From IMG/VR virus record IMGVR_UViG_3300040816_000922, positions 1 through 53,578 of that record: 53,578 nt of DNA. The stretch is one strand, 5' to 3'. This DNA comes from a virus. The notes beneath the pieces were generated by a model, which did not search any database, was not told where the DNA came from, and worked only from the letters and a program-made list of their open reading frames with translations. Positions 1 to 28,324 of this stretch are shown here, in pieces (position 1 is the stretch's first letter; each line of letters opens with the position of its first letter). The translations under genes and the position numbers were made by a program.

Positions 1-248
1 GGGGCGGCAAGGGTCCTTCACGCAAATTATCTATACGGCAAAGATGGTCGGTCGCTACCGGATTGTTTCGGTAGACGATGGGTCCAGCCATTGCGTGTCG
101 GTCCCGGCGCATAGCTTCGATATGAGCGACAAGAGCATCAACAAAGCCTTGTCCGCTGCCTATAAATATATGTGCGTTCAGGTGTTCAGCATTCCCCTCG
201 AAGGGATGGAAGACCAGGACGCAGACCACATCGAGCCCTCCCCCCAGC
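1..248. repeat. Terminal overlap, left copy
   Basis: These 248 bases recur at the right end of the window (53331-53578). I compared them base by base and found one difference, T at 121 against C at 53451, silent in the ERF reading frame. This is what a circularly closed or circularly permuted genome gives when the ends are not trimmed. It is not flanked by any element and lies inside a gene, so it is not a true terminal-repeat boundary on this evidence. Confidence 0.93.
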
Positions 249-436
249 TCGAAGCTGCTCCCGATGACGTTGACAAGTTGCGCGACGCCATCCGGGGCAG
301 CGCCTCTCTCGACGATCTGCAAAAGGCATTCGCCACCGCCTATCGCTATGCAGGGAATCGGAAGAAGGCTGAGCTCCAGGAGGAGTTTAAGAGCCTGTAC
401 GACACACGAAAGGCAGCCTTTGAAGAGGCAGCGTAA
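2..436 (+). CDS. erf: ERF-family single-strand annealing recombinase, C-terminal part
   Basis: This is the 3' part of a gene whose 5' part lies at 53095-53578; joined across the circle it encodes about 221-223 residues, normal for ERF. ERF proteins coat single-stranded DNA and anneal complementary strands during phage recombination and genome circularisation. The family signature is visible: a DKSINKALSAAYKYMCVQVF stretch followed by IPLE, matching the DKATNKAhSAAaKYahhphF pattern. The C-terminal third is a charged helical tail. The stop codon overlaps the start of the exonuclease gene (TAATG), so annealing protein and nuclease are translationally coupled, like lambda Bet/Exo and RecT/RecE pairs. 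Confidence 0.88.
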   Translation, partial: GRQGSFTQIIYTAKMVGRYRIVSVDDGSSHCVSVPAHSFDMSDKSINKALSAAYKYMCVQVFSIPLEGMEDQDADHIEPSPQLEAAPDDVDKLRDAIRGSASLDDLQKAFATAYRYAGNRKKAELQEEFKSLYDTRKAAFEEAA

Positions 437-1365
437 TGGTTGCTGTACAGCAGGGCTCCGAAGCGTGGCATCAGCTACGGGACGGGAAGGTTACCGGCTC
501 TAGGGTCGGCGCCATTCTCGGGCACAACCCGTACCAAAAGCCCGACGCCGTGATGCGCGAAATGGTTCGAGCACACTTCGGTGCAGAGCGGGAGTTTGTG
601 GGCAACGAAGCCACGGCGCACGGGCACATCAAAGAGCCTGAGGCTCGGTCCTTTTACGAGGTACTGACCGGCACCCAGGTCGATGAAACCGACATGATTC
701 AGCACCCCGAGCACGATTGGATCGGGGTGTCTCCTGACGGTCTGGTCGGCATCGACGGGGGATTAGAGATCAAGTGTCCGTATTGGGCTAAGCGCCCATA
801 CACCATGGCGCAGAAGCAGTATTACTACGATCAGGTGCAGCTGTTTATCTGGACCGCTGGCATCGAGTGGTGCGACTTCCTCTGCTACTTCTCGCCGGAC
901 AAGTACCACCTCGAGCGCGTCACCCTGAGCCAAGACTGGATCAAGGAAAGCCTCCCTGTCCTGGAAGCATTCATCCAGGAGTACCAGGCGGTGATCAAGT
1001 CCAGGAAGCGCGCAGAAAAGTATCTCCGGGACGACACCAGCAACGCGGAGCAGGTGCAGGACAGCAGGCTCACGCGCCTGGCGGAGCTGATCCTCGAAGC
1101 GCAGGTGCTCGAAGAGAAGCTAGCCCCCATGACGAAAGAGATCCGCGAGCTCCGCTCGGCGGTCGGAAAAGATCACGGCACTTGCACCAACGGAGTGGTG
1201 CTTGTGAAGGCGGTCCAAAAGCAAGGCGCTGTTGATTGGCAGCGAGTTGCCGAAGCCGCAATGAGCGTCCCCGGTGCCAGGGATGTTGTCGGGGACCTCA
1301 ATAACTGGCGGAAGGAAGGCACTACCGCATACAGCACTGCCCTACTCAAAGGAGATGTCGAATGA
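436..1365 (+). CDS. YqaJ-family viral recombinase / alkaline exonuclease
   Basis: A 309-residue protein of the lambda-Exo-like PD-(D/E)XK fold. The N-terminal QGSEAWHQLRDGKVTGS motif is typical of YqaJ. The nuclease core follows: AHGHIKEPEA (about 61-70), SPDGLV with Asp101, LEIKCP with Glu111 and Lys113 as the E-x-K pair, and YYYDQVQ with Gln133. The C-terminal third is helical. It should degrade double-stranded ends to expose single strands for the adjacent ERF protein. It starts within the ERF stop codon and its own stop overlaps the SSB start (ATGA), so the three genes form a coupled recombination cassette. Confidence 0.9.
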   Translation: MVAVQQGSEAWHQLRDGKVTGSRVGAILGHNPYQKPDAVMREMVRAHFGAEREFVGNEATAHGHIKEPEARSFYEVLTGTQVDETDMIQHPEHDWIGVSPDGLVGIDGGLEIKCPYWAKRPYTMAQKQYYYDQVQLFIWTAGIEWCDFLCYFSPDKYHLERVTLSQDWIKESLPVLEAFIQEYQAVIKSRKRAEKYLRDDTSNAEQVQDSRLTRLAELILEAQVLEEKLAPMTKEIRELRSAVGKDHGTCTNGVVLVKAVQKQGAVDWQRVAEAAMSVPGARDVVGDLNNWRKEGTTAYSTALLKGDVE

Positions 1366-1766
1366 GTGGCGTCAATAAAGCCATCGTGATCGGAAACCTT
1401 GGGGCTGACCCCGTGGTCCGGCACACCCAGCAAGGCAAAGCCATCGCAAACCTTCGCGTTGCAACGTCCGAGTCCTGGAAAGGTCAGGACGGCTCGAAGC
1501 AGGAGAACACTACCTGGCACACGGTGGTCTGCTTCGGTCGCACCGCTGAGATCGCAGGACAGTACCTTAGCAAGGGCTCCAAGGTATTCGTCGAGGGACG
1601 GATGCAGCACGGGACCTACACCGACAAGGAAGGGAACGAGCGCGCTAGCTTCGAGATCGTCGCTCAGAACCTTCAGTTCCTGGACGCCAAGGGTGGCGGC
1701 GGCGGCAGCGCCCCTGCTCCCAAGCAGGACAACGGCGGTGACTTCAACGACGACATCCCCTTTTAA
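1362..1766 (+). CDS. ssb: Single-stranded DNA-binding protein
   Basis: A 134-residue bacterial-type SSB. Residues 1-108 are the OB-fold: NKAIVIGNLGADP, then NTTWHTVVCFGRTAE, then GSKVFVEGRM. A Gly-rich linker follows, and the C-terminus is the acidic tip DDIPF that in SSB binds partner enzymes. Retention of this tip suggests it recruits host or phage replication and repair proteins. It overlaps the exonuclease gene by 4 bases. Confidence 0.96.
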   Translation: MSGVNKAIVIGNLGADPVVRHTQQGKAIANLRVATSESWKGQDGSKQENTTWHTVVCFGRTAEIAGQYLSKGSKVFVEGRMQHGTYTDKEGNERASFEIVAQNLQFLDAKGGGGGSAPAPKQDNGGDFNDDIPF

Positions 1767-1768
1767 CT

Positions 1769-2149
1769 ATGGCTCTAGTTCTGACCAGAGGAAGGAATCG
1801 AGCTCTCTACCTAGGTGAAGAGCTTGACCCGAGGAACATGGAGGAGACCTTTGATCACAAGGTCACCGTCCTGGATCTGAGTGAGCCCGACCCGGGCTCT
1901 CCCCTATGGGTCAGGCTCGCCATCTCTACGCGCATCGGAGAGGACCTCATTTCGCACGAGGTCGATCTCGATGCCGAAAAGCTTTGGGTGGATCTGTCGT
2001 CAGACAAAGGCACCCCTACAAGAATGAGCCTTGTGAAGGTCGAGAACATGCTTGGGAAAAACCAGGAGCTCGCAGTGTGCGCGCGCCTTGCCTTCGAGGC
2101 TCCCAGGTCGGTGCGGATCATCCGCGACAACGCAGTCAAATGGGACTAA
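1769..2149 (+). CDS. CsrA/RsmA-like protein with a large internal insertion
   Basis: A 126-residue protein whose two ends look like CsrA. The N-terminus MALVLTRGRNRALYLGEEL parallels CsrA strands 1-2 (LhLTRRVGEhhhIGDEV). The C-terminus ARLAFEAPRSVRIIRDNAV parallels the last strands (VRIGINAPKEVxVHREEI), including an Arg at the position of the RNA-contacting Arg44. CsrA itself is about 61 residues; here roughly 65 extra residues separate the halves. RsmN/RsmF of Pseudomonas is a precedent for a rearranged CsrA fold with an insertion. It would bind GGA-containing mRNA leaders. It follows SSB by 2 bases, in the recombination operon. The similarity is short and the call needs a structure prediction. 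Confidence 0.55.
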   Translation: MALVLTRGRNRALYLGEELDPRNMEETFDHKVTVLDLSEPDPGSPLWVRLAISTRIGEDLISHEVDLDAEKLWVDLSSDKGTPTRMSLVKVENMLGKNQELAVCARLAFEAPRSVRIIRDNAVKWD

Positions 2150-2153
2150 GGAT

Positions 2154-2402
2154 ATGGACAAGATCTTTGTTGGTAACGCCTTGGTAGATCTAGGTTCGGT
2201 GGACGAGCCAATCAAGGAAATGATCGTCACCATCCGGGAGATGGATAAAGAGCTGGCGCGAGAGTTTGATCGCATTACCCTGCTCCGGAAATCTAGGAAC
2301 CTTTTGTTTAGCCAGCTCGAGCAGCAGATCCCCAAGCGCCGTGGTCGTCCGCCTCGAGTCGATGCGAAATTCCCCCGGCTAGGCAAGACTCTTTCGATAT
2401 AA
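2154..2402 (+). CDS. Small coiled-coil protein with basic RGRPPR tail
   Basis: An 82-residue protein starting at the ATG at 2154, just after the CsrA-like gene. The middle (about 17-55) is a charged helix with heptad-like spacing. The tail KRRGRPPRV contains an AT-hook-like GRP core, so contact with DNA or RNA is possible. I do not recognise a family. It is the last gene of the recombination operon before the integrase control region. Confidence 0.7.
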   Translation: MDKIFVGNALVDLGSVDEPIKEMIVTIREMDKELAREFDRITLLRKSRNLLFSQLEQQIPKRRGRPPRVDAKFPRLGKTLSI

Positions 2403-2540: not shown

Positions 2541-2555
2541 CCTCTCGAGGAGAGG
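2541..2555 (+). promoter_or_regulatory. Hairpin that includes the integrase Shine-Dalgarno
   Basis: CCTCTC-GAG-GAGAGG is a perfect 6-bp inverted repeat with a 3-base loop. Its right arm and loop make up the GAGGAGAGG that serves as Shine-Dalgarno for the ATG at 2564, 8 bases away. Folding of this short stem would mask the site, a common way to keep integrase translation low or tied to an upstream reading event. Confidence 0.45.
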
Positions 2556-2563
2556 ATAAAACT

Positions 2564-3394
2564 ATGCAGAAAACGTTGGGAAGGGCTGTTGATCGTTGGC
2601 TGAAGATCAGGGAGCGCAAGTGTAAGAACCCGAAGTGGGTTGGCTATGACCGAACCTACACCGCGTTCTTCCTTGAGAAGCTGGGGGCAGACACCCTCCT
2701 CTCTGACATTCGGCGGTCAGACATAGCGGAGATCCGGGATGAAATGCTCGAGGAGCGTTGCCCGGCAACAGTGAACCGCTACATGACCACGCTGCGCTCG
2801 ATCCTAAATATGGCTCGAGATGATTGGGAATGGATTGATCGCGTTCCCAAGATCGAACGGCTGGAGGAGAAGGCAAGGCAGAACTTCATTACCAGGGAGC
2901 AGGCTCGAACTCTGATCGAGCTCTTGCCCGAGCACCTGGCAGCGATGGTTCGCTTTGTTCTCGCCACCGGCTTACGCAGCGCTAACGTTCGCAACCTCCG
3001 CTGGGATCAGGTGGACATCCGGCAGAAGTATCTGGAGATCCCTGGGGAGGAAATGAAAAACGGGAGAGTGTTCTCGGCACCGTTGAACTCGACGGCTATC
3101 GAGGTGCTCCTCGGACAGTACGGGAAACATCAGGAGTACGTTTTCCCGTACAAGGGAAAGCCGGTATCTCAATGCAACACGAGGGCTTTCCGAGAAGCTT
3201 GCCGTAGGGCGGGGATTCCTGGAACCAGGTTCCATGACCTTCGGCATAGCTGGGCTAGTTGGCACATTCAAGCCGGAACCCATACCGCCAAACTCAGAGA
3301 GCTCGGCGGTTGGAGCGACGACAAGATGGTGCAACGCTATGCCCACCTGAACCGACGCCATCTAGAAGAAGATGTGGAGGTCACAGCTTTTTGA
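2564..3394 (+). CDS. int: Tyrosine recombinase integrase
   Basis: A 276-residue site-specific recombinase from the ATG at 2564, chosen for its GAGGAGAGG Shine-Dalgarno; in-frame alternatives are ATG 2504 and TTG 2477, adding 20 or 29 residues. The N-terminal part (about 1-95) is the core-binding SAM-like domain. The catalytic domain shows Arg138 in ATGLRSANVRNLRW, the HDLRHSW box with His224 and Arg227, GGWSDD, and the nucleophile Tyr259 in MVQRYAHL. It integrates the phage at the host site matching the tRNA-Gly fragment 80 bases downstream. Gene next to attP is the usual temperate arrangement. Confidence 0.95.
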   Translation: MQKTLGRAVDRWLKIRERKCKNPKWVGYDRTYTAFFLEKLGADTLLSDIRRSDIAEIRDEMLEERCPATVNRYMTTLRSILNMARDDWEWIDRVPKIERLEEKARQNFITREQARTLIELLPEHLAAMVRFVLATGLRSANVRNLRWDQVDIRQKYLEIPGEEMKNGRVFSAPLNSTAIEVLLGQYGKHQEYVFPYKGKPVSQCNTRAFREACRRAGIPGTRFHDLRHSWASWHIQAGTHTAKLRELGGWSDDKMVQRYAHLNRRHLEEDVEVTAF

Positions 3395-3474
3395 TCTAAA
3401 TGTTTCAGAGACTACAACCTACCATTTGGTTTGGACCCCGAAGGGGTAGGTAAGTCGCTGAATCTATTTAGATT

Positions 3475-3526
<52 letters not shown>

Positions 3527-5163: not shown

Positions 5164-8100
5164 TTAATCTTCAGCGGTTTCCTTGGTGAAGCGAGCGTTG
5201 AAGCGGCGATACACCTTGTACTCCCGCTCAACCATCTGCTCCTCGTATTCCTCGAAGCGCTCCTCGCTCATGTACTTCTCGGCGCTGCGCTTAGCTTTCC
5301 GGATCGAGCGAAGCTGCTTCTCCGCAGATTTCAAAGCCCCGGCAAGGCGAAGAACGCTGGCGTTCTCTCTTGAGAACTCGAGCCGCTCTTTCCCTCTGAG
5401 GGAATCCTTCTGATCTACGACCCGCAGAATCTCGTTGCGGTTGGTGTAGAAGGAATCCAGGTGCTCGTACTTTGAGGGCTGACCGTAGACTGCTCTCAGC
5501 AAGGGATACTGCCGAGCCTCAAGCTTCTCAACATCGCCAGTAAATGCGGCGCCGCCGAAGTTGATGAGGCGCATCCCAAACCGTCCGGCGCCCCCAGCAT
5601 AGAAGCCAACAATGTGATCGATGGCGTCCGGCGCAATATCAACCATGCCGGGGATATGTTTCTCCCCGCCGCTGATCTCGTTTAAGAACTGAGCAATCGC
5701 AATCGATGCTTCGCTGGTGTTCGGTCGGTGCAGCAAACTGTTCGGCAAATGCTCCTGATTCGGATACCGCCGGGGCAGGATGCTTGAGCCCCAGTGGTTC
5801 TCGTTGATCGCAAGCTGAACCCAGGGCTGAGCAATAGTAGGAGATGCGGACTTGATCGCCGTTCGAGTGATCCCGTTGGGTGACGCGGATACAGACAGTG
5901 GCGAGAAGCTGCCTAGGAACGCTCCGAAAACATTATTCACCGCATCGAGAGGCGTCTTGCGCGGGCTGAATGCCGCGTCCGTCAGCTCCGTCCCAATGAC
6001 ATGGAGCACAGAAAAGCCGTAAGGGAGGGGGATCTTAAAATAATCCTCCCCGTCCAGCGGATTCATGAAGATCATGTTCCGATCTTTCTCGTGCTGAGGA
6101 ATCATGTCGTAGTGGAGATTCCCCTCATCGTCCTCTCCGCTGATCATGCGATTCATCACAGCTAGACCGACCGACACGCCTACGCTCGCCATTGCAAGGC
6201 GCTGCGCAGCCGTCATGGTGCCTTGCTTAGTCTTTCCGGTAAGGCTTCGGATGACGTTCATGTTCCCCTGCACGGCGGCGTTGAAGAACATATAGAACGA
6301 ATTGATCCAGGCGGTAGATTCACCTCGACGGTTAAAGTTGACCGTTAGGTTCTTCGCCAAGTCTGCTGCACGCTCGGCGGACACTCCCTGTTGCCGGGCG
6401 GCGACATAGGCTGATAGCCGGGCAGCGTTCTCGAAAGCGCCGTTAAAGTCCTGGATAAAGTCCATGACCTTTCTGGCGCCGCGCTTGGCGTCAATCATGC
6501 TCGACTTGCCGTTAATCCTAGTAAGCGAGTCGATGCGGCTTGCTTCCTTCTCGAGATCCAGCAGGTTTGCCCAGCCGGTCATGCCGCCGAACTCCCTGAA
6601 CTCTTGGGCGTATCGATCAAACAGGACCTGCTCTGGGGTGCTGCCGCCCTTCCCTCGCGCGCTCCGCCAGAACGCTCGACCGCTAGCGATCCAGTTTTTC
6701 GGGATCTGACCGGCAATCTTTTTGCCCTCAACCCTGCCATCCGAGCGAGTCTGCTCCGCAAGGGCGTTGTACATAGCGGTGAACAGGTCGCGAGGAGCGT
6801 TCACAAGGAAGAAGGCTGGGTTGTATGTCGTCGATAGCTGGGAAAGGGCGCGGGTAAATCCGCCCAGGTACTGCACAACCAGCTTGTTCGCTTCTTCGCT
6901 ATTCGTGGCACCAGCGTTTTGCATGGCGCGATTGACCAGCGGATCCTTGAGCTCGATGAAGTAGGTGCCGCCGTCAATCTTAGCCATCATGAAGCGCTTA
7001 TCGCCGTTATCTTGGCGACGAGCAGTCCGCATATTGATGCGCTGGCGGACGATGCCGCCTCCGGGACCAGGCATCTCCTCGAGGGGACCATTGCCTTCTG
7101 CGTATACCTTCCAGCTCGTGGAGTCCGGGTACTCGAGGGTGAGGTCTAGCATAGAGACCGCCACCTCGTTCTTGCGGATCCGCATCGCCTTTTCTTGAGC
7201 AAGGCGAAGGCTGTTCAAGACGGGGTTAGCAGCCTTGGTTCTCCGACCTAGCGCAGCCATCGTTTCGCTGCCGCCAATAGAGAAGCCTGCGCCGGTCCTG
7301 GCGCCGCCCACGACGGGGGTCTTCATCTCTTCGGCGAAGCCTTGGAGGGGGACGTAGAACTTGAAAGAAGATTCCCACTTAACCTGGGTTTCCTCGTCAA
7401 TCATCCCTGCCTCATTGAGCCGGTCGCGGGCGTCCTGAAGGATGCCGTACATAACCTGGCTAGCCCTGCGGAGCTCCTCCGTCTTGCCCTCCTGGTCGAA
7501 GCGCAGAAGGATCTGATCCGCCTCTTGGTTGGTCATGCCCGATCCGCCATCATCCATCGGCTCAGGGGGCTGGCTTCTTGGGTTCCTGCCTTCCGCCACG
7601 GCTTGCTCGTGGCGCGCAATCGCCTCCCGACGCTTTTCCGCAATGAACTGATTACGCTCAGGGGCGTGCATCGCGTACATATAGAGCCCGAGCTCCTCGA
7701 GGCTAAGCCCGGCGTCCTTGAGGATCGGGACAGCGCGCTCGAACATCTGCTCGATGCGTCGGAAGTCTTCCCCAACCTTCCCGTAGTACAGGGTTTCCTT
7801 TAGGGAAACATCGACAGCCTCGTCAAGCTGGTCTAAACCATTGACCTCTTTGACCTTCTCGAGCTGAAGGCGGACGCGGAGCATCTTGTCCTGGATCTTG
7901 CGAAGGAATGCCTCGGTCCTGGTTTCATCATCCAGGTTGTAGAGGTTCGACGGTTCGCGATCAGAAAGCATTCCGCCTTCTGCCCGGGCGCTCTCGTAGT
8001 TAAAGTTGAGCCCGCTTTGAACAGGGTCGGGAGCTTCGTTTAATTCTGAGCTCTCTCGTGGGATAGCCTGTCCCTGATCTCCGCCCAGCGCGGATTCGGC

Positions 8101-11100
8101 TTCCCGTCCCTGATAAAAGAGTTGATCTTGTCGATTAGGGCTTTGGTCGTTCCGCTGAGCGCCGCCGTCTTGATCTCGCCCGACGGAACCGGGTGCCCGA
8201 ACTTCGCTTCGTACAAAGCCATCGCCCGCTGGAGTGGATTCTCTGCGGCGATTCGAGTCCAGTTGAACGCCATTTCTTCCTCCGTTGAACCGCTGAGAAG
8301 CGGTCTCTGCCGCATCCTGGATGACGGCAAAGGTCTGCGGCATGTTGCGGCGCAGCGCCTCGCGGTCAGTGTAATAGAGAGCATAGGACTGAGCAAAAAG
8401 CTCCCGGGCAATAAGCACCTGATCCTCTTGCGAGATCTGCCCTCCGCCGTCCTTGAGCATCCCCTCAATCAGGTTAAGGGGGTAGGTGTAATACTCAGAG
8501 AGCTCGCCGCCCTGCCACTGCTCGGCAGCCTCATTGAACAAGGGCTTGCCATCGACAATGAGCTCCCCGTTCTGCTGCTGCGCCTGGAACCCAAAGGAGC
8601 TTTGGACCATGCGGGCGGCAAGTCCCCTGCCCTGCGCCATGTTGAAGTCAACGGCGTGACCCACCTCGTGGGCAAGGGTGGACCGGAGAACCCGCCGGAG
8701 GCTTTGCTTGTACTCGCTGCGATCCCCTGAGGTGTCGCTTGCCAGGTCGGCAAACAGCTGAGAGTTAATCCCGACAACGCCAGCCTGGTAGTCAAAATAG
8801 CCAACCGTGCCGTCCGTGGTGTCGAAGGAAACGATGCCGTTCTGAGCCAGGTTGCCGATCAGATCGGTCGTGATACCGATCTCGGATAGATCCTCCATTG
8901 CTGCCGCGAGCTCGTTGCGGGCAAAGGAAGGGATCTGGTTTCCGCGATAGCCATTGGAGACAACATCCTCCGCCTGGCTGTATACAACCGAATCAGGGGT
9001 TCCTACCGAGGCTGCTCGGATGAATCGGACCTTGGGGATAGAGGTAATTCGCCCGGCATATCGGAAGCTTCCGGGGCTCTGCTCGAAGTCGATGCGCTTG
9101 AAGAGCGACGGGCTATCCGGTCCTTCTTCAGGAACTCGATTGCCTCCCTCGGGAGCAGCATCGGCGGCTCGTCCGGGTGCTTCAGGTTCGCGTTGTGCGT
9201 TGCTACTGCCAGCATCCGGTAGAACATCCGGTCGGTTAGCTGGCTGCGCGAAGAGGTCTTGGGGTTGTCCTGCATTATTCAGCCTCTCGAAGTTTTCAAT
9301 CGCAGAATCAACGATCTGATCAGTTGACGGCGCCTCGAGCTCCTCTCCAAACAGGCTTCCCGACTGCGAGGATTGATTCGCGGTTTCAAGGAATCGTCCC
9401 ATATCGGAGAGCAAAGAGCTCATCTTTTTGGCGGACCGCTTGTTTGCATCCAGCTGCTTGGCGAGAGTCGCGCTTACGGGGTCAATATCCCCAAACATCC
9501 CGGTCTGTGCAGCCAGATCTTCGACCGACCTATTCTCTCGGCGAGATTGCTGCAAGAGCTCAACCGCTCCTACAACCTTGGACACCAGATCACTGCTTAG
9601 GGTAGACCCCTCGGCTTCGAGCGCCCGAGCCCGAGCGAATACCGGAGCCGCTGTCTGCAATGCGTTCAGGACATTTTTGACATCCGGGTTAGTGTCCTCG
9701 GTGGCGACCGTAACCAGGCGAGCGTCACCATACGCCCTGGCGAAAACTGCATTCCGGATTCGGTTGACTAGAGCAGGCGTTGGGCGCCCGTCGCTTTGCA
9801 GTAAGCCTGATGCTTGGGTGGTCCCGAGCTCTGCCGAAAACTTTGATAGGAACCTGGCGTTGGATGCCGTATCAATCTCGCCGTTTTCGCCTGGAGCAAA
9901 GGAGGTCATCATCTCGTCAGAGATCATGTTTGCGTCTGCGAGCGCCTGCTCCGAAGGGGACATAGCGGCAATGGCGGACACGTTGGCGTCGCGGGTAAAC
10001 GCCTTTCGAGCGTCTACGGATAGGTCTCGAGTCCGGCGGCGGACGAGTACCGGGTTCGGAACAGAGTTGATCTGCTCCTCCGAAACTCCGCGCTGCTTAG
10101 CCTGCTCTCGCACCCAGGCAGCATATTCCCCCGCCTTGCCCCGTTGATACGCGAGCTGGAGGGCAGCCGCTCGACCATTGCCGCTCTCAACCACAAGATC
10201 GGGACCAACAACCGGGGCGCCGTCCTCTGCCCGCCCGGTGTCTCCAAGCTGCTCTGGAACCAGGGTGTTAGCAATCTCCTGGATCTGGACAAGGCTTGCC
10301 TGACGCGAGCGGTCCCGAGGCTGTAGTTCTGCCGGGTAAGCAGGGTTCACGCTGCCGTCGAATCTATTACTTGAGATCAGCTGGCTTGCATCGACGACCG
10401 CCCACTCCGCCTCAAACTCTTGAGCCTTGGAAGTCCTCACCCGAGCAGGGAGCCCGGTAAGGATTGGCGCGCCAGCGGTAGAAGCAGGCGCCTGGCTTTC
10501 CGCACCAGTAAGCCTGATGCCCCCGGTAAAATCAGGATCGATCAGACCCTGGTCAGCCAGGTCCTTTAAGACAGCCTGAGTCGGGTTAAAGCCGGTCCGA
10601 AGCCCGTTCTGAACATCGCTAACGGTAGGGTTTTCCGTGCTCCTAATGATCTCGAGAGCTTGCTGCGCCTGGGAGGCTACCGGCGCCTGGGCAATCGGAG
10701 CGTCTTGGTCAGCCTGTTCGACGGTATCTCTTGCAGAAAGCTGGATAGATGGCTGAGCTGGCGGATCTGGCAGTCCTTTCGGAATAAGATCTTTTTGCCC
10801 GGGAGCTGCGATATTGAGCTCTTGCAGCTTGCGAAGGCGCCGAAGGTTCTCCTGCTGCCTGGGGGTTAGGCTCCCCTCGTTACGGTCAGGCGTTCCCTCA
10901 AGGGGCGCGGTGCCCTGAGTCTCCGGGGCTGTATCGCTAGGGGGATTTTGAGGCGGCGCGGTAAGCCTTCTTGCTCCTGCGGTTACCCCAAGCTGCGCGC
11001 CACCACCCACAATCGTCGCGATTGAGGTAATCAGCTGGCGCTCTGCTTGAATTTCCCCAGCCCTTCCGTAATCCCCTTCATCGATTGCTTGCTCGAGCTC

Positions 11101-11934
11101 AGGGTCTAAGCCATTGGAGTAGGCATTGAGCGATTGGAAGAAAGTGGCGAGCTGCTCGCCAGGGATCTCGGTAAGCGCAAAGTCCCTCAGGGTTTTGGTA
11201 ATCTCCTGGCGCCCTTCTCCGCCCTTCCCGCCTAACGCGCGAACCAGGACCATGTTAGGGAGAACCTCGGTAGCTGCCTCAATTACCGCGTCAACCCCGG
11301 CATAGTTTGCCGCCTGGCTATGGTCTAGCCCCTCTGCTCGAGCCGTTGCGTAGCTATCCCCCGCCACAAGCGCGGACGCGCCCGTGGTGGCAACGGTGGG
11401 GCTGCGGGTAGCAAGAGCTGCAACCATCGTCGGCAGGTTTTGGGCAAAGGACACTACCCCGGAACGCACCCCTTCCTGCATTACGGAAAGGTTTTCAGGT
11501 CGGACGCTTGCGACTTCCCGGTCTATTTCCTGTGCCCGGGCAATCTGAGACTGCGCATCTTCCCTAAGCTGAGCCCCTAGCGGCGTCCGACTAATGATTT
11601 CCCTAACAGCATCCTGCGCAAGGTTGTACGCAGCAGCAGGACCCATCGTGTATCTTCCGGGCAGGCTAAGGGGGTCAGGCTCAGGTGCTGTCCCGAGATC
11701 GCTAGCCAGCCCTGCCCCAATCCCCCTGTAACTTTTTTCGGTTGCAAGGGCTATTTCTGACCCTAGCCCAGAGGCAATCCCGGAAAAGAACCCCTCGCTC
11801 TCAGGACGAACGGGCTCCGAGCCCAGACCGGACTCAACCTCATTCATGATGTCTTCGAGAGAGCGAGGAGTTTTTTGCTCCGGCGCCTTCTCCACTTCAT
11901 CCATGATAGAGCCGAGGCTGGGTCTCGTTGCCAT
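5164..11934 (-). CDS. Giant polyvalent virion protein with ParB-like, zincin and LPD38-type domains
   Basis: A 2,256-residue protein starting at ATG 11934, four bases after the upstream stop. The N-terminus repeats a SLxxIMxEVE unit twice (about 4-40). Around residues 490-680 is a DdrB/ParB-like domain with a GPDLVVESGNGRAAALQLAY core (GNGR near 580). At 1089-1093 lies HEVGH in LAHEVGHAVDF, a gluzincin-type metalloprotease motif. Residues about 1690-1990 (STTYNPAFFLVNAPRDLF, then a hydrophobic segment near 1925) resemble the LPD38 domain of polyvalent proteins. The rest is helical and low in recognisable folds. Polyvalent proteins are thought to be ejected with the genome and to act early against the host. 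As the last gene of the internal-virion group, it is likely an ejection protein. No clear peptidoglycan hydrolase was seen. Confidence 0.85.
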   Translation of the reverse strand: MATRPSLGSIMDEVEKAPEQKTPRSLEDIMNEVESGLGSEPVRPESEGFFSGIASGLGSEIALATEKSYRGIGAGLASDLGTAPEPDPLSLPGRYTMGPAAAYNLAQDAVREIISRTPLGAQLREDAQSQIARAQEIDREVASVRPENLSVMQEGVRSGVVSFAQNLPTMVAALATRSPTVATTGASALVAGDSYATARAEGLDHSQAANYAGVDAVIEAATEVLPNMVLVRALGGKGGEGRQEITKTLRDFALTEIPGEQLATFFQSLNAYSNGLDPELEQAIDEGDYGRAGEIQAERQLITSIATIVGGGAQLGVTAGARRLTAPPQNPPSDTAPETQGTAPLEGTPDRNEGSLTPRQQENLRRLRKLQELNIAAPGQKDLIPKGLPDPPAQPSIQLSARDTVEQADQDAPIAQAPVASQAQQALEIIRSTENPTVSDVQNGLRTGFNPTQAVLKDLADQGLIDPDFTGGIRLTGAESQAPASTAGAPILTGLPARVRTSKAQEFEAEWAVVDASQLISSNRFDGSVNPAYPAELQPRDRSRQASLVQIQEIANTLVPEQLGDTGRAEDGAPVVGPDLVVESGNGRAAALQLAYQRGKAGEYAAWVREQAKQRGVSEEQINSVPNPVLVRRRTRDLSVDARKAFTRDANVSAIAAMSPSEQALADANMISDEMMTSFAPGENGEIDTASNARFLSKFSAELGTTQASGLLQSDGRPTPALVNRIRNAVFARAYGDARLVTVATEDTNPDVKNVLNALQTAAPVFARARALEAEGSTLSSDLVSKVVGAVELLQQSRRENRSVEDLAAQTGMFGDIDPVSATLAKQLDANKRSAKKMSSLLSDMGRFLETANQSSQSGSLFGEELEAPSTDQIVDSAIENFERLNNAGQPQDLFAQPANRPDVLPDAGSSNAQREPEAPGRAADAAPEGGNRVPEEGPDSPSLFKRIDFEQSPGSFRYAGRITSIPKVRFIRAASVGTPDSVVYSQAEDVVSNGYRGNQIPSFARNELAAAMEDLSEIGITTDLIGNLAQNGIVSFDTTDGTVGYFDYQAGVVGINSQLFADLASDTSGDRSEYKQSLRRVLRSTLAHEVGHAVDFNMAQGRGLAARMVQSSFGFQAQQQNGELIVDGKPLFNEAAEQWQGGELSEYYTYPLNLIEGMLKDGGGQISQEDQVLIARELFAQSYALYYTDREALRRNMPQTFAVIQDAAETASQRFNGGRNGVQLDSNRRRESTPAGDGFVRSEVRAPGSVGRDQDGGAQRNDQSPNRQDQLFYQGREAESALGGDQGQAIPRESSELNEAPDPVQSGLNFNYESARAEGGMLSDREPSNLYNLDDETRTEAFLRKIQDKMLRVRLQLEKVKEVNGLDQLDEAVDVSLKETLYYGKVGEDFRRIEQMFERAVPILKDAGLSLEELGLYMYAMHAPERNQFIAEKRREAIARHEQAVAEGRNPRSQPPEPMDDGGSGMTNQEADQILLRFDQEGKTEELRRASQVMYGILQDARDRLNEAGMIDEETQVKWESSFKFYVPLQGFAEEMKTPVVGGARTGAGFSIGGSETMAALGRRTKAANPVLNSLRLAQEKAMRIRKNEVAVSMLDLTLEYPDSTSWKVYAEGNGPLEEMPGPGGGIVRQRINMRTARRQDNGDKRFMMAKIDGGTYFIELKDPLVNRAMQNAGATNSEEANKLVVQYLGGFTRALSQLSTTYNPAFFLVNAPRDLFTAMYNALAEQTRSDGRVEGKKIAGQIPKNWIASGRAFWRSARGKGGSTPEQVLFDRYAQEFREFGGMTGWANLLDLEKEASRIDSLTRINGKSSMIDAKRGARKVMDFIQDFNGAFENAARLSAYVAARQQGVSAERAADLAKNLTVNFNRRGESTAWINSFYMFFNAAVQGNMNVIRSLTGKTKQGTMTAAQRLAMASVGVSVGLAVMNRMISGEDDEGNLHYDMIPQHEKDRNMIFMNPLDGEDYFKIPLPYGFSVLHVIGTELTDAAFSPRKTPLDAVNNVFGAFLGSFSPLSVSASPNGITRTAIKSASPTIAQPWVQLAINENHWGSSILPRRYPNQEHLPNSLLHRPNTSEASIAIAQFLNEISGGEKHIPGMVDIAPDAIDHIVGFYAGGAGRFGMRLINFGGAAFTGDVEKLEARQYPLLRAVYGQPSKYEHLDSFYTNRNEILRVVDQKDSLRGKERLEFSRENASVLRLAGALKSAEKQLRSIRKAKRSAEKYMSEERFEEYEEQMVEREYKVYRRFNARFTKETAED

Positions 11935-11935
11935 A

Positions 11936-13297
11936 TTACTGATCGCCCCCTGCGCCCAAGACTTCTTGATAACGACCGTAGATCTCTTGAATTTGCGCAG
12001 GGTTGTAATTGCGAATCCGTTCGAGCTGCGCGTCAATCTGTTGAGGCGACTTCGTAAGGTACTCGCGCTGCGCCTCTTGCATGAGGAAAAAGCGCATTTC
12101 ATTAATACCTAGGTCTCGCTCTGCCCCTGCTGCCGAAGGCGCCGTGTCTCTCGGGAGGAGATTGCTCGGGACCACGCGCGAATACTCTTTGTCGAGTGCG
12201 TCATCAACGAAGTAACTGATGGGAAGCTCGGGACCAAGAAGGTCCGGGTCTTCGATCCCGTTGCGTCGAGTCATATAGGCTTTGTATGCCTCCTCTCCGC
12301 GCCTTTCCGCAGCAGAAAATCTATCCGGATCTGCCTTTCGGACCTGGTCGAGGAGGGCTCTCTTCATGGAGGGGTCCTCCTTCACCGCCGCTTGCACCAT
12401 GCTCAACCCGATAACAGGATTGATAATGTCTTCGAGGCGAATGTCGGCAGCTGGAGCGTTAGGGTCAGTGCTGCGTCCTACGGTAATCGGCGCCTCATAG
12501 GACCCGCCTTCTGCATCCACCTTGAGGTTAAGGCGCAGAACTGGAGCTCCGTCCTCTTCCTGCCCCACAACCTCATAGCTCACAACGTCAGCGTTGGTGA
12601 TCACGCCGTTGCGCCCGACCGCCCCTTGGATAGCCTTTAGGTTTGCGTCCATTCCAAGGTTCAGGGCATCAAGAAGCTCAGAGCTGTTCGCCTGCAAGGG
12701 TTTTTCCCCGCGAACAAAGCCCATAGCATTTTCGATGCGCCCCGCCGCTGCTTGGCTAAGCATAGCGGTGGGATGCAGTGCAGACCCTTCGGTAAGCTTT
12801 AGCCCCTGAAGCACCGATTCCGTCACCCCCTGCCCACTTGGATCCAGCATGGGAAGCCACTGAGTGAATCCTCTTCGTGCCGCATCAAGGCGTGCAGCAG
12901 TCTGGCTTTGCTCAAGGTCAAACTCGGTTTTGCTAGTGCTTGCTGCGGAAGAAGCCTCCTGCGCGCGGCTTGCCGCGATTCGCGCGGCTGACTCATCTCC
13001 AGCTCGAGCATCTTGCCTGAACGCGAGCGTGTTCTCGTAACCAGCTTGGCGCATATCGAATAAGGCTTTATCCCGAGCAGCGAGTGCGGCTTGCTCTGCG
13101 GCGGTGGCTTCTCGATCCGCCTGCTCGCGCATGTACTTCCGATACTCCTCATCCGCGCTAGCTTCTTGAACGGCTAGCTCGTAACGCTGCTTGAGATTTT
13201 CCGCATTTGCAGCGTCAGCCGCCTGGCGACGCTTGCGCTCTTCCATGTCGTTGACTAAGCCGTAGCCTGAGGTAAATCCTGCTGCAAAGCCGCCCAT
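11936..13297 (-). CDS. Putative internal virion (ejection) protein
   Basis: A 453-residue protein. The first 130 residues are a long Ala/Glu/Arg-rich helix (coiled coil), preceded by a glycine-rich GGFAAGFTSGYGLVNDM start. The rest is mixed alpha/beta with an acidic middle. No enzyme motif is seen. Its place between an Ala/Gly-rich protein and the giant polyvalent protein, and its composition, fit podovirus internal core proteins such as those at the equivalent place in T7 or P22. Function by position only. Confidence 0.7.
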   Translation of the reverse strand: MGGFAAGFTSGYGLVNDMEERKRRQAADAANAENLKQRYELAVQEASADEEYRKYMREQADREATAAEQAALAARDKALFDMRQAGYENTLAFRQDARAGDESAARIAASRAQEASSAASTSKTEFDLEQSQTAARLDAARRGFTQWLPMLDPSGQGVTESVLQGLKLTEGSALHPTAMLSQAAAGRIENAMGFVRGEKPLQANSSELLDALNLGMDANLKAIQGAVGRNGVITNADVVSYEVVGQEEDGAPVLRLNLKVDAEGGSYEAPITVGRSTDPNAPAADIRLEDIINPVIGLSMVQAAVKEDPSMKRALLDQVRKADPDRFSAAERRGEEAYKAYMTRRNGIEDPDLLGPELPISYFVDDALDKEYSRVVPSNLLPRDTAPSAAGAERDLGINEMRFFLMQEAQREYLTKSPQQIDAQLERIRNYNPAQIQEIYGRYQEVLGAGGDQ

Positions 13298-26400: not shown

Positions 26401-28324
26401 AGACGACGTCGTTGCTGCTGTAGGGGTAGTAGAAAACCTCGGTTCGCGTTCCGGCATCTAAACGATAAAAGGTAATTGCGTCCGATGTTTCTCCGCTGAC
26501 AAATGCGGGGGACCCATCGCCGTTATATGAGATGCCCCCGCCGTAGTTATCGGCTTGTCCTACCTCAATCGCGCCGGTTCCCTGACCGTCTCCGTTCGCC
26601 CTGATTAACGCCAATCCTTCGTTATCACACTTTACGCTGAGCGTTGTGCTGGTGCCGTTGTCTACCGTGAGGTTCCCGCTGATTGTGTCGCTGGTGTCAG
26701 ACCGCAGGAACTGTGAGCTATTCAGTCCATCAAGAAGATCAGCGTCTAAGCCAGAGCCGGAGCCGTCGTTGGCTGCGTGCCAGATTCGGTACTTAGCTGC
26801 GCCTCTGGACCAGCCGCCCCAGAACAAATCATTAGTGGTGCCGTCAAGACCGAAATAGCCTGCGTAGTCACCTGAAACGTGGAACGTCATAAAGGCGTCA
26901 GTATTTGCGGTAGGCGAATACACCTCTAAGCTGGATTGACTACCACTGGTAGATGCTCCGTTTGTGTTGGAGTACCAGCTAGTTTTGCTGGTATAGGCGA
27001 TGCTCTGATTAGTGTCACTACGAAGGAGTACGCTGCCCTGAATGCCGTCAACGGTGTCAGCATCAAGACCTGATCCGACGCCGTCCACCGTCTTTATTTT
27101 TGTCAGAACGTCAGCAGCGGTGTAGGAAGATGAAGGCAGCTTTGCATCGAGCGCAGCCTGGAGCCCGTCCACATTAGCGATGACGTGGTTGTGGCTGTCG
27201 TCAGCAATCGTGGTGGCAAGAGTCGCATTCGCAGAGCCGTCCCAGGAGACAGAGCCCGTAACGTCCCCAGATAGAGCTAGGGTTCGGCTAGTCGTCCAGG
27301 CATCTGCGTTGGGGTGGTAGCCGTCAGTGAATACGCGGTCCCCAGAGGTATAGTTCGCTCCACCGTTCGGGTTGTGACGAAGTGCGCCCTGCACCTCAGA
27401 CATATAGGCGTCGGCGCCGAACCCGGACTTATTGTCCGTTCCCGTACCTTCCCCGAGCTCAAGGCGCTCCGCCAGGACCTCAATTATGTAGGCACCAGAA
27501 TGGTCAATGGAGATATGGGGCTTGCCGTTAGCCCCAACAATGAATTCAGGGTGGTTGCTGCTTACCCCGCTTTGGTAGGTGACATTAACCTTCCACGTTC
27601 CGTTCTCATTCCAGTAAACGGCAGTCGCGCTCTGGTCCGTGCCAGTCGCGGAGATATGGGCGTGGAAGCGATACGCACCACCATTCGGAAGCGAGTTGCC
27701 ATCGTGGTAGAGCAGCTCTTCTGGGTTGTTTAACGAAACGGTGTAGTTCCGCTTCCAGACGTGAAGGTCGTCAGAAATAGAGTAACCGCCTTCCGCGAAG
27801 ACAAGTCGTCCGGTAAGCGTGTCGCCGGTAACGTTTACGAAGCGAGTATCGGCTTCCGTCTCTGTGTAATAGCGCCCGTCGTGAGTGTGGCTGTCGTCAG
27901 TCACGGTAACGGTTAATGTCGCGCTAGCAAGATCTGCTAGCGTTACTGAGCCAGAGGCATCCCCTGCCAGGGTTATCACCGGATCTGGCTTGTTCTGAAC
28001 GTCAGCCCAAAGGGTGACGCTCGCCTCGTCCGCGAGATCGTTAAGAAGCGCAGCGGTTACCCGGAGCTGGACGAAATCCCCAGAAGAGAATGCCTGGGCA
28101 GTGGTCCCGTCCTGACCCCGAGTAACCGTCAGCGTGTTTGAGGAAATCGCCGTGACTTTGACGATCTCAAGATTCCCAGACGTATCCTCTAACGTGACAT
28201 AGGTGTGGTCTCCAGGCGTAAGCGCTGGGAACACTGACCCGTCAGCAACCGAAATACTGGTTGCAGCAGCGGTTATGCCGCTAGCTAGAGTCGTCTGAGC
28301 ATTATTTGAGAATCGAATCGCCAT
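23477..28324 (-). CDS. Long tail fibre with C-terminal S74 chaperone domain
   Basis: A 1,615-residue fibre. Residues 1-110 form a beta-rich attachment domain (TTLASGITAAATSISV, DFVQLRVTAALLNDLADE). The body carries repeated NDGSGSGLDADLLDG units with FLRSDT-type partners, spaced 90-210 residues apart, typical of trimeric phage fibres. From about residue 1510, SDRAVKTNLEVIP begins an intramolecular chaperone of the peptidase S74 type, which folds the trimer and then cleaves itself before the Ser-Asp. The last 30 residues form a coiled coil (AIKELKAEVNDLKAQL). It should be the main host-recognition fibre. Confidence 0.88.
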   Translation of the reverse strand: MAIRFSNNAQTTLASGITAAATSISVADGSVFPALTPGDHTYVTLEDTSGNLEIVKVTAISSNTLTVTRGQDGTTAQAFSSGDFVQLRVTAALLNDLADEASVTLWADVQNKPDPVITLAGDASGSVTLADLASATLTVTVTDDSHTHDGRYYTETEADTRFVNVTGDTLTGRLVFAEGGYSISDDLHVWKRNYTVSLNNPEELLYHDGNSLPNGGAYRFHAHISATGTDQSATAVYWNENGTWKVNVTYQSGVSSNHPEFIVGANGKPHISIDHSGAYIIEVLAERLELGEGTGTDNKSGFGADAYMSEVQGALRHNPNGGANYTSGDRVFTDGYHPNADAWTTSRTLALSGDVTGSVSWDGSANATLATTIADDSHNHVIANVDGLQAALDAKLPSSSYTAADVLTKIKTVDGVGSGLDADTVDGIQGSVLLRSDTNQSIAYTSKTSWYSNTNGASTSGSQSSLEVYSPTANTDAFMTFHVSGDYAGYFGLDGTTNDLFWGGWSRGAAKYRIWHAANDGSGSGLDADLLDGLNSSQFLRSDTSDTISGNLTVDNGTSTTLSVKCDNEGLALIRANGDGQGTGAIEVGQADNYGGGISYNGDGSPAFVSGETSDAITFYRLDAGTRTEVFYYPYSSNDVVFNGSITSSDIRVNNANTALSQGSGNALRITTNSGYVDIGPMNGTYSHFSTDRGKFYFNQPVHFDGQIYNYIGGGTTDPYWRAGNDGSGSGLDADLLDGVQAAGFMRQLSDTTSPNYTTPSSRRVDPNSSNPTNAHHAIVTFGNDGNVTGQLATHFVSGQPYTRGYNTSWSSWRTIWTDANDGSGSGLDADLLDGQHGSYYQPASTAITTGNIGSQSVSSASNIDGISFRNGNSSNGIGPDYVQENGTGYINSVSLFGQTDGALYSQAYSTAWVHQIFGDYRTGNLAVRGRLNGTWQSWKTVWTSANDGSGSGLDADTVDGLNSSSFLRSDTQATSSASLILANNWGQGTYNGQFVIQGTYPSWETRGDASQPYGWLHHQDGSGNYTLYSIAGYNNNSWTQRFTFNHGDQTFRNGGPSGNVYYHQGNDGSGSGLDADLLDGLQLHTGRNNEVNKVVRTDSNGYIQAGWINTTSGQMGSATAPDRVYCSNDGYIRYAPATNFIHKQGTTYYQAGNWIDFQSSNGAGLYWSANTGAGWHIHPTATGNMRLRSGEATYCQIELNTTGTSRAHIYADSSHNAGWLNSGAGWRMRLPSSGSFIRYEGSTQYTMWDSGNDGSGSGLDADTLDGYHHSTFWKDNEDRRISVLRFSGEGGNSSHGTISYGIFQEGGAWSNPYPDLHVGYHTGIKIGGYYGYNGTRFYDDAPSRSGAAKVMSVADGSNNVNIDNTTYSYAYRGNGNVGGTGEASYHPAGIYSTGTNWLYGTMYMNGNSQYMSGGSMFSTNRIVCDQNYGEGVYGVYSSYRYQHVWMMSTSYKLASDGTGVGNAYGMSYTHPNVGTGTNQAIAGLSHQLQGREAGSLVWALGTGIWTAYNITAYSDRAVKTNLEVIPDALSKVCQLNGYTYDRTDYKPDPLTGTMPETRQAGVVAQEVELVLPEVVSGEEGNKAVAYGNMVALLIEAIKELKAEVNDLKAQLESK
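24527..27085. repeat. Interspersed coding repeats in tail fibre
   Basis: A 35-45 base unit encoding DGSGSGLDAD plus LLDG or TVDG occurs about seven times, near 24530, 25085, 25450, 25830, 26120, 26735 and, more diverged, 27050. The DNA is nearly identical between several copies (core CCAGAGCCGTCGTTG), so recombination between copies could shorten, lengthen or swap fibre segments. Confidence 0.8.

What the first reader, a model, noticed from the sequence alone, without database searches (positions are those of the whole stretch)
1769..2149. CsrA-like fold interrupted by about 65 residues in a phage recombination operon
Both ends of the protein match CsrA strands, including the LTR start and the Arg-containing RNA-contact strand, but the fold is split by an insertion. 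Phage regulators of this design would act on host or phage mRNA leaders. RsmN/RsmF gives a precedent for altered CsrA topology. The gene lies just after SSB, an unusual place for a post-transcriptional regulator.
Basis: partly seen in the sequence, partly recalled or inferred. Interest (0 to 1): 0.7.

Follow-up and report, generated by a model that had tools for sequence, protein, structure and literature searches.

The report
Phage CsrA-like protein with built-in insert
A family of marine phage proteins, found in about 70 viral sequences and always next to the phage's DNA-recombination genes, is a rebuilt version of the bacterial RNA-binding regulator CsrA, possibly folded so that one protein chain does the job that normally needs two.

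Summary
It belongs to an unnamed phage family: 67 loci in viral contigs and one in a Porticoccaceae MAG, 35 distinct proteins besides the window copy. Pfam and NCBIfam give only sub-threshold CsrA matches; PHROGs gives nothing credible. In all 68 loci it follows a YqaJ exonuclease and a small protein in the SSB position; an integrase lies downstream in 61. With the insert removed, the family profile hits only CsrA/Rsm proteins in the whole PDB (11 of 11 hits, best E 2e-7). The C-terminal half alone aligns with CsrA beta2-beta5 at P about 1e-8. Most CsrA/RsmN RNA-contact residues are kept, including an invariant Arg equal to CsrA Arg44 / RsmN Arg62. A confident template-free model of the window protein superposes on RsmF (54 of 66 residues, 2.2 A, 28% identity). 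The strand order fits a single-chain pseudo-dimer with one RNA site; that step is inferred. All 35 other members carry a CxxC loop that the window copy lost. The most likely role is an early post-transcriptional regulator; RNA binding is untested. The location is not unusual: some ordinary phage csrA genes also sit in recombination regions.

The parts
1769..2149 (+). CsrA-like protein (126 aa, called CSRL here)
   Evidence: ORF; family of relatives; CsrA/Rsm similarity; AlphaFold2 model pLDDT 86.4, pTM 0.80; RsmF match
1769..1819 (+). N-terminal CsrA-like beta1-beta2 (residues 1-17); Arg7 codon at 1787-1789 equals CsrA Arg6 / RsmN Arg8
   Evidence: aligned with CsrA 2-16; shuffle control 2 of 200; Arg7 invariant in 27 of 27; strands 3-8 and 12-16
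1820..1942 (+). insert (residues 18-58): short helix 24-27 and strands 30-37, 47-56; proposed to stand in for beta3-beta4 of the missing partner subunit
   Evidence: secondary structure; no sequence similarity to CsrA detected; role inferred
1943..2146 (+). C-terminal CsrA-like half (residues 59-126): strands 59-68, 85-95, 101-110, 116-119; Arg119 codon at 2123-2125 equals CsrA Arg44 / RsmN Arg62
   Evidence: profile alignment of the same half in the family with CsrA; model; residue count
1362..1766 (+). single-stranded DNA-binding protein, stop codon 2 bp before the CSRL start
   Evidence: Pfam SSB 2.3e-34; PHROG 44
436..1365 (+). YqaJ/RecE-like exonuclease
   Evidence: Pfam YqaJ 2.7e-25; PHROG 434
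44..436 (+). C-terminal part of an ERF-type annealing protein; the record starts inside the gene
   Evidence: Pfam ERF 6.9e-5, profile 67-135 of 153
2154..2402 (+). small ORF after CSRL; a small ORF is found in the same place in most relatives
2552..3394 (+). tyrosine integrase
   Evidence: Pfam Phage_integrase 2.3e-31; PHROG 1

Best explanation
CSRL is a phage protein derived from the CsrA/Rsm family of RNA-binding translational regulators. One chain carries an N-terminal beta1-beta2, an insert with a short helix and extra strands, and a C-terminal beta2-beta3-beta4-beta5. Most likely the chain folds as a single-chain pseudo-dimer, in strand order beta1-2-3-4 followed by beta1-2-3-4-5. One RNA site is then made by the N-terminal beta1 (Leu3, Leu/Ile5, Thr6, Arg7) and the C-terminal beta4-beta5 (Ala111, Pro112, Arg113, Ile117, Arg119), as in one RsmN monomer. 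It is expressed early with the recombination genes and most likely binds GGA-type sites on phage or host transcripts to change their translation or stability. Shown here: the family, its synteny, CsrA ancestry by sequence, kept contact residues, and an RsmF-like placement of the end strands in a predicted model. Inferred: the pseudo-dimer, early expression, RNA binding, the targets, and the purpose of the CxxC loop.
For: Ends-joined profile against all PDB sequences: only CsrA/Rsm proteins are hit, 11 of 11, best E 2e-7. C-terminal half against a CsrA alignment: P 5.6e-9 to 1e-8, and ungapped over CsrA 1-51 once the CxxC loop is taken out. Pfam CsrA is matched by 15 of 27 members, best E 2.1e-5. 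Contact residues: Leu3 27/27, Leu/Ile5 27/27, Arg7 27/27, Pro116 27/27, Arg123 27/27, Ala115 26/27 in L088 numbering, set against the RsmN-RNA structure (PMC3791407). Template-free AlphaFold2 models: pLDDT 86-87, nine strands counting a short bridge. RsmF 4k59 superposes at 2.2 A over 54 of 66 residues with 28% identity, the highest identity in the list. Synteny YqaJ - SSB position - CSRL in 68 of 68 loci.
Against: No member whose score was shown reaches the Pfam cut-off (18.2 of 27 bits at most). RsmF is not the best structural row: CcsBA has Z 9.1 against 4.6, with 3% identity, and RsmF is not listed for the second model. The insert shows no sequence similarity to CsrA and the two halves do not match each other, so the pseudo-dimer rests on strand order and on the RsmF match. 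Strand pairing in the model could not be inspected and no dimer was predicted. RsmN Arg9 / CsrA Arg7 is not conserved.
Confidence: 0.6

Rival explanations
1. It is an RsmN-type protein whose helical insert grew into a three-stranded add-on, and it still works as a homodimer with two RNA sites. The insert and, in relatives, the CxxC loop serve dimerisation or partner binding.
For: The insert lies at the RsmN/RsmF insertion point and a short helix is kept there (residues 24-27); RsmF is the family's best PDB sequence hit when the ends are not joined.
Against: The protein is about twice the size of a CsrA subunit and its nine strands nearly equal the ten of a dimer; the stretch before beta3 also looks like CsrA beta2, which a mere add-on would not explain.
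Confidence: 0.22
2. The CsrA sheet was reused for DNA work: CSRL is an accessory single-stranded-DNA or annealing factor of the recombination module rather than a regulator.
For: It is always next to the YqaJ exonuclease and the SSB-position gene, two bases after ssb in the window.
Against: The residues kept are the ones that read RNA GGA in RsmN/RsmE; canonical csrA genes also sit in such phage regions, so position alone does not imply a DNA role.
Confidence: 0.15
3. It is an antagonist of host CsrA: a one-site decoy that occupies host mRNA or sRNA GGA motifs without bridging them, freeing or blocking host transcripts during infection.
For: A single site per chain would bind RNA without the two-site bridging of CsrA; at least one member lies in a gammaproteobacterial MAG (Porticoccaceae), a class in which csrA is common (general knowledge).
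Against: No target evidence; one site per chain is itself inferred.
Confidence: 0.12
4. It is an unrelated small beta-barrel whose ends resemble CsrA by chance or convergence; the nearest fold would be the beta-domain of CcsBA/CcmF.
For: 7s9y gives Z 9.1 and 10.3 for the two models.
Against: Those matches have 3-8% identity and middling Z values are common for models without a clear match (tool note); sequence evidence points only to CsrA.
Confidence: 0.06

Closest known systems
RsmN / RsmF of Pseudomonas aeruginosa (PDB 4kji, 4krw, 4k59)
   Same: Extra residues between beta2 and beta3; no C-terminal helix predicted; conserved APR...RD-type beta4-beta5 end; Arg62 equivalent invariant; the window model superposes on RsmF at 2.2 A; best PDB sequence hits of the unspliced profile
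   Different: RsmN is 71 aa with a 16-residue helical insert and docks as a homodimer (PMC3791407); CSRL is 126-134 aa with extra strands and, in relatives, a CxxC loop; the RsmN Gly-Ile motif is replaced by FDHR
Canonical CsrA/RsmA/RsmE (PF02599), including phage csrA
   Same: Profile similarity over beta1-beta5 with the ends joined; phage csrA of F116, PP9W and VvAW1 also lie among recombination genes; csrA in phages is documented (30 phages, PMC7366521)
   Different: Uninterrupted CsrA domain of about 50-60 aa acting as a domain-swapped homodimer; CSRL is interrupted, twice as long and scores below the family cut-off
Unnamed phage proteins in BFVD: A0A7S5VUW4, A0A7S5T677, A0A6G5YD98, A0A6G8R4L0, A0A6J7WXS8
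   Same: Foldseek probability 1.00 to the L088 model; the first two also to the window model
   Different: 10-18% identity, 96-201 aa, uncharacterised; their sequences could not be examined here

Membership tests
CsrA/RsmA family (PF02599) | sequence similarity over the whole beta1-beta5 domain | tested here: met
   met only with the insert and CxxC loop removed: 11 of 11 PDB hits, best E 2e-7; C-terminal half P about 1e-8
CsrA/RsmA family (PF02599) | score above the curated Pfam cut-off (27 bits) | tested here: not met
   16.8 bits for the window protein; 12.1-18.2 for the matching members scored
CsrA/RsmA family (PF02599) | short uninterrupted CsrA domain (about 50-60 aa) | tested here: not met
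   126 aa in the window, 129-134 aa in relatives, interrupted after beta2 and, in relatives, between beta3 and beta4
CsrA/RsmA family (PF02599) | RNA-contact residues of beta1 and beta5, above all CsrA Arg44 | tested here: met
   Leu3, Leu/Ile5, Arg7, Pro116, Arg123 in 27 of 27; Ala115 in 26; the CsrA Arg7 position is not kept
CsrA/RsmA family (PF02599) | domain-swapped homodimer | not tested
   no dimer prediction available; a single-chain pseudo-dimer is proposed instead
CsrA/RsmA family (PF02599) | binding of ANGGA RNA | not testable with these tools
   needs a bench assay; GGA upstream of the gene coincides with the Shine-Dalgarno sequence
RsmN/RsmF subfamily | inserted alpha helix between beta2 and beta3 | tested here: inconclusive
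   only a four-residue helix (24-27), followed by extra strands
RsmN/RsmF subfamily | Gly-Ile motif at the end of the inserted helix | tested here: not met
   FDHR/FEHR at that place; motif as described in PMC3791407
RsmN/RsmF subfamily | fold of the RsmN/RsmF monomer | tested here: inconclusive
   4k59: Z 4.6, 2.2 A, 54 of 66 residues, 28% identity for the window model; not listed for the L088 model

The most novel reading that the evidence does not exclude
A natural single-chain CsrA dimer: a tandem fusion that lost one beta5, keeps exactly one of the two RNA sites (first beta1 with last beta5), and gained a metal-binding-type CxxC loop, used by a lineage of marine phages as a regulator in their recombination operon.
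Probability: 0.42. Interest if true: 0.75.

Novelty: new variant of a known kind. Interest (0 to 1): 0.6.

Why it matters
CsrA acts through two symmetric sites that can bridge two RNA elements. A natural one-chain form with a single site would separate binding from bridging and give a ready test of what bridging is for. It also adds an unnamed, conserved phage family to the few post-transcriptional regulators known in phages, fixed beside recombination genes in dozens of viral sequences.

Tried and rejected
Direct searches with the window protein in viral contigs, genome contigs, phage and plasmid records found no relative; the family came only through the terminase of related phages. Family members also found nothing credible in named phage records. 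PHROGs and PADLOC gave nothing credible. Tested and not supported: sequence similarity of the insert to CsrA, or of the first half to the second. Conserved GGA motifs before the gene were looked at but merge with the Shine-Dalgarno sequence. A second weak CsrA hit at 27158-27229 covers part of the profile and lies antisense inside the 1615-aa ORF; taken as chance. CcsBA/CcmF and the S-layer DUF1608 domain rank first by structure score but without sequence support. Canonical CsrA was not among the structural rows shown, which is no evidence either way.

Full report
What is there. The ORF at 1769-2149 encodes 126 aa, starts two bases after the stop codon of a clear SSB gene, and sits in the order ERF (cut by the record start) - YqaJ exonuclease - SSB - CSRL - small ORF - integrase. 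The window is a single virus record of 53,578 bases. On its own the protein has one weak family match, Pfam CsrA at E 0.0065 over residues 106-123, and direct searches find no relatives.

Relatives. The large terminase led to 80 loci from related viral contigs. Searching 34 of these records with the window protein gave five full-length relatives with 28-35% identity. Their alignment then pulled out 67 loci from IMG/VR and, after enlargement, one from a Porticoccaceae MAG contig that carries the same phage-type neighbourhood. There are 35 distinct proteins of 129-134 aa. Gene order is fixed: YqaJ - a small protein in the SSB position, in most examples read ending in an acidic DDLPF-like tip - CSRL in 68 of 68 loci, with an integrase downstream in 61; the other seven show none in the stretch held.

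CsrA ancestry by sequence. Of 27 diverse members, 15 match Pfam CsrA, best E 2.1e-5, but those whose scores were shown stay below the cut-off. The unspliced profile's best PDB hits are RsmF and RsmN, at E 0.1 to 1. A profile-profile comparison aligns residues 65-126 of the relative L088 with CsrA 9-47, that is beta2 to beta5, at 5e-5 with the CxxC loop in place and about 1e-8 with it taken out. The cut points were chosen with CsrA in mind, so the controls matter: shuffling the N-terminal 17 columns reaches the observed score in 2 of 200 trials, and among 114 possible 17-column windows placed before the core only one containing the natural second beta2 scores higher. The N-terminal piece is therefore supported at about the 1% level on its own and the C-terminal half very strongly.

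Residues. In the RsmN-RNA complex, Leu4, Leu6, Ala54, Val58, Ile60 and Arg62 contact the GGA bases, and R62A lowers affinity more than 1,000-fold (PMC3791407). The equivalents here are Leu (27/27), Leu/Ile (27/27), Ala (26/27), Tyr (26/27; Val in the window copy), Ile/Leu/Val (27/27) and Arg (27/27). RsmN Arg8, which forms a salt bridge with Glu64, is Arg in 27/27 facing Asp/Asn. RsmN Arg9 is not kept.

Structure. Template-free AlphaFold2 gave pLDDT 86.4 and pTM 0.80 for the window protein, and 87.2 and 0.75 for L088. Strands in L088: 3-7, 12-16, 30-40, 43-52, 55-62, a bridge at 68-69, 75-86, 104-114, 120-123. Re-alignment of Foldseek's candidates placed RsmF (4k59) at Z 4.6, 2.2 A over 54 of its 66 residues, 28% identity, spanning residues 1-122 of the window model. 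By Z alone several unrelated beta-domains rank higher or level (CcsBA 9.1), with low identity, and RsmF is not listed for the L088 model. I read the RsmF match as real because it agrees with the independent sequence evidence and has by far the highest identity, but by Z alone it would not be convincing.

How it may work. In the CsrA dimer each sheet is beta5A-beta2B-beta3B-beta4B-beta1A; in RsmN the chain path differs but the sheets look the same. If CSRL is read as beta1-2-3-4 followed by beta1-2-3-4-5, the two sheets of a CsrA dimer can be built from one chain with only one beta5 missing. The complete site is then the first beta1 with the last beta5, exactly the two segments that are conserved, while the other site is gone. 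The RsmF superposition is what this arrangement predicts for the five strands at the two ends. The insert itself shows no sequence trace of CsrA, so this step is an inference. All 35 other distinct members carry a CxxC pair, usually followed by GR, between beta3 and beta4; the window copy has a shorter loop without it. A metal site is plausible but untested.

Function. An early post-transcriptional regulator is the simplest reading. Canonical csrA genes occur in phages (30 listed in PMC7366521; 85 records match here), and in F116, PP9W and VvAW1 they also lie among exonuclease, RecT or SSB genes; in other phages no such neighbours are annotated. So the location beside SSB is not itself odd. 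No target could be named: GGA motifs before the gene coincide with its Shine-Dalgarno sequence.

Verdict. The protein is CsrA-derived and probably works like RsmN, but it fails two operational criteria of the family (cut-off score, short uninterrupted domain), so I call it a new variant rather than a member.

Noticed in passing
window 3472-3526: About 53 bases match the end of tRNA-Gly genes (up to 100% identity), directly downstream of the integrase; ARAGORN finds no whole tRNA. Probably the phage attachment site, which would put integration at a tRNA-Gly gene.
   Followed up: partly
L156 4001-4372 (phage F116), L158 4001-4372 (PP9W), L161 4001-4372 (BR228a): These Pseudomonas phage CsrA proteins carry a long C-terminal extension (about 123 aa in all) with a shared ending, another enlarged phage CsrA form.
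   Followed up: no
L083-L087 and L088-L154, gene before CSRL: In relatives the SSB position is held by several short, mutually different proteins, most ending in an acidic DDLPF-like tip, whereas the window has a true SSB.
   Followed up: partly
window 2154-2402: Small ORF after CSRL; small ORFs in the same place in relatives resemble DUF6447 only weakly (E 0.031 for one of two relatives tested).
   Followed up: no
window 5164-12102 (-): A 2312-aa ORF; a 1129-aa ORF of similar look lies downstream of CSRL in the Porticoccaceae locus L162, suggesting the same phage lineage; the two were not aligned.
   Followed up: no
BFVD A0A6G5YD98, A0A6G8R4L0, A0A6J7WXS8: Phage proteins of 96-113 aa with no assigned function match the L088 model at probability 1.00. 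About 100 aa is the size expected for two fused CsrA units.
   Followed up: no
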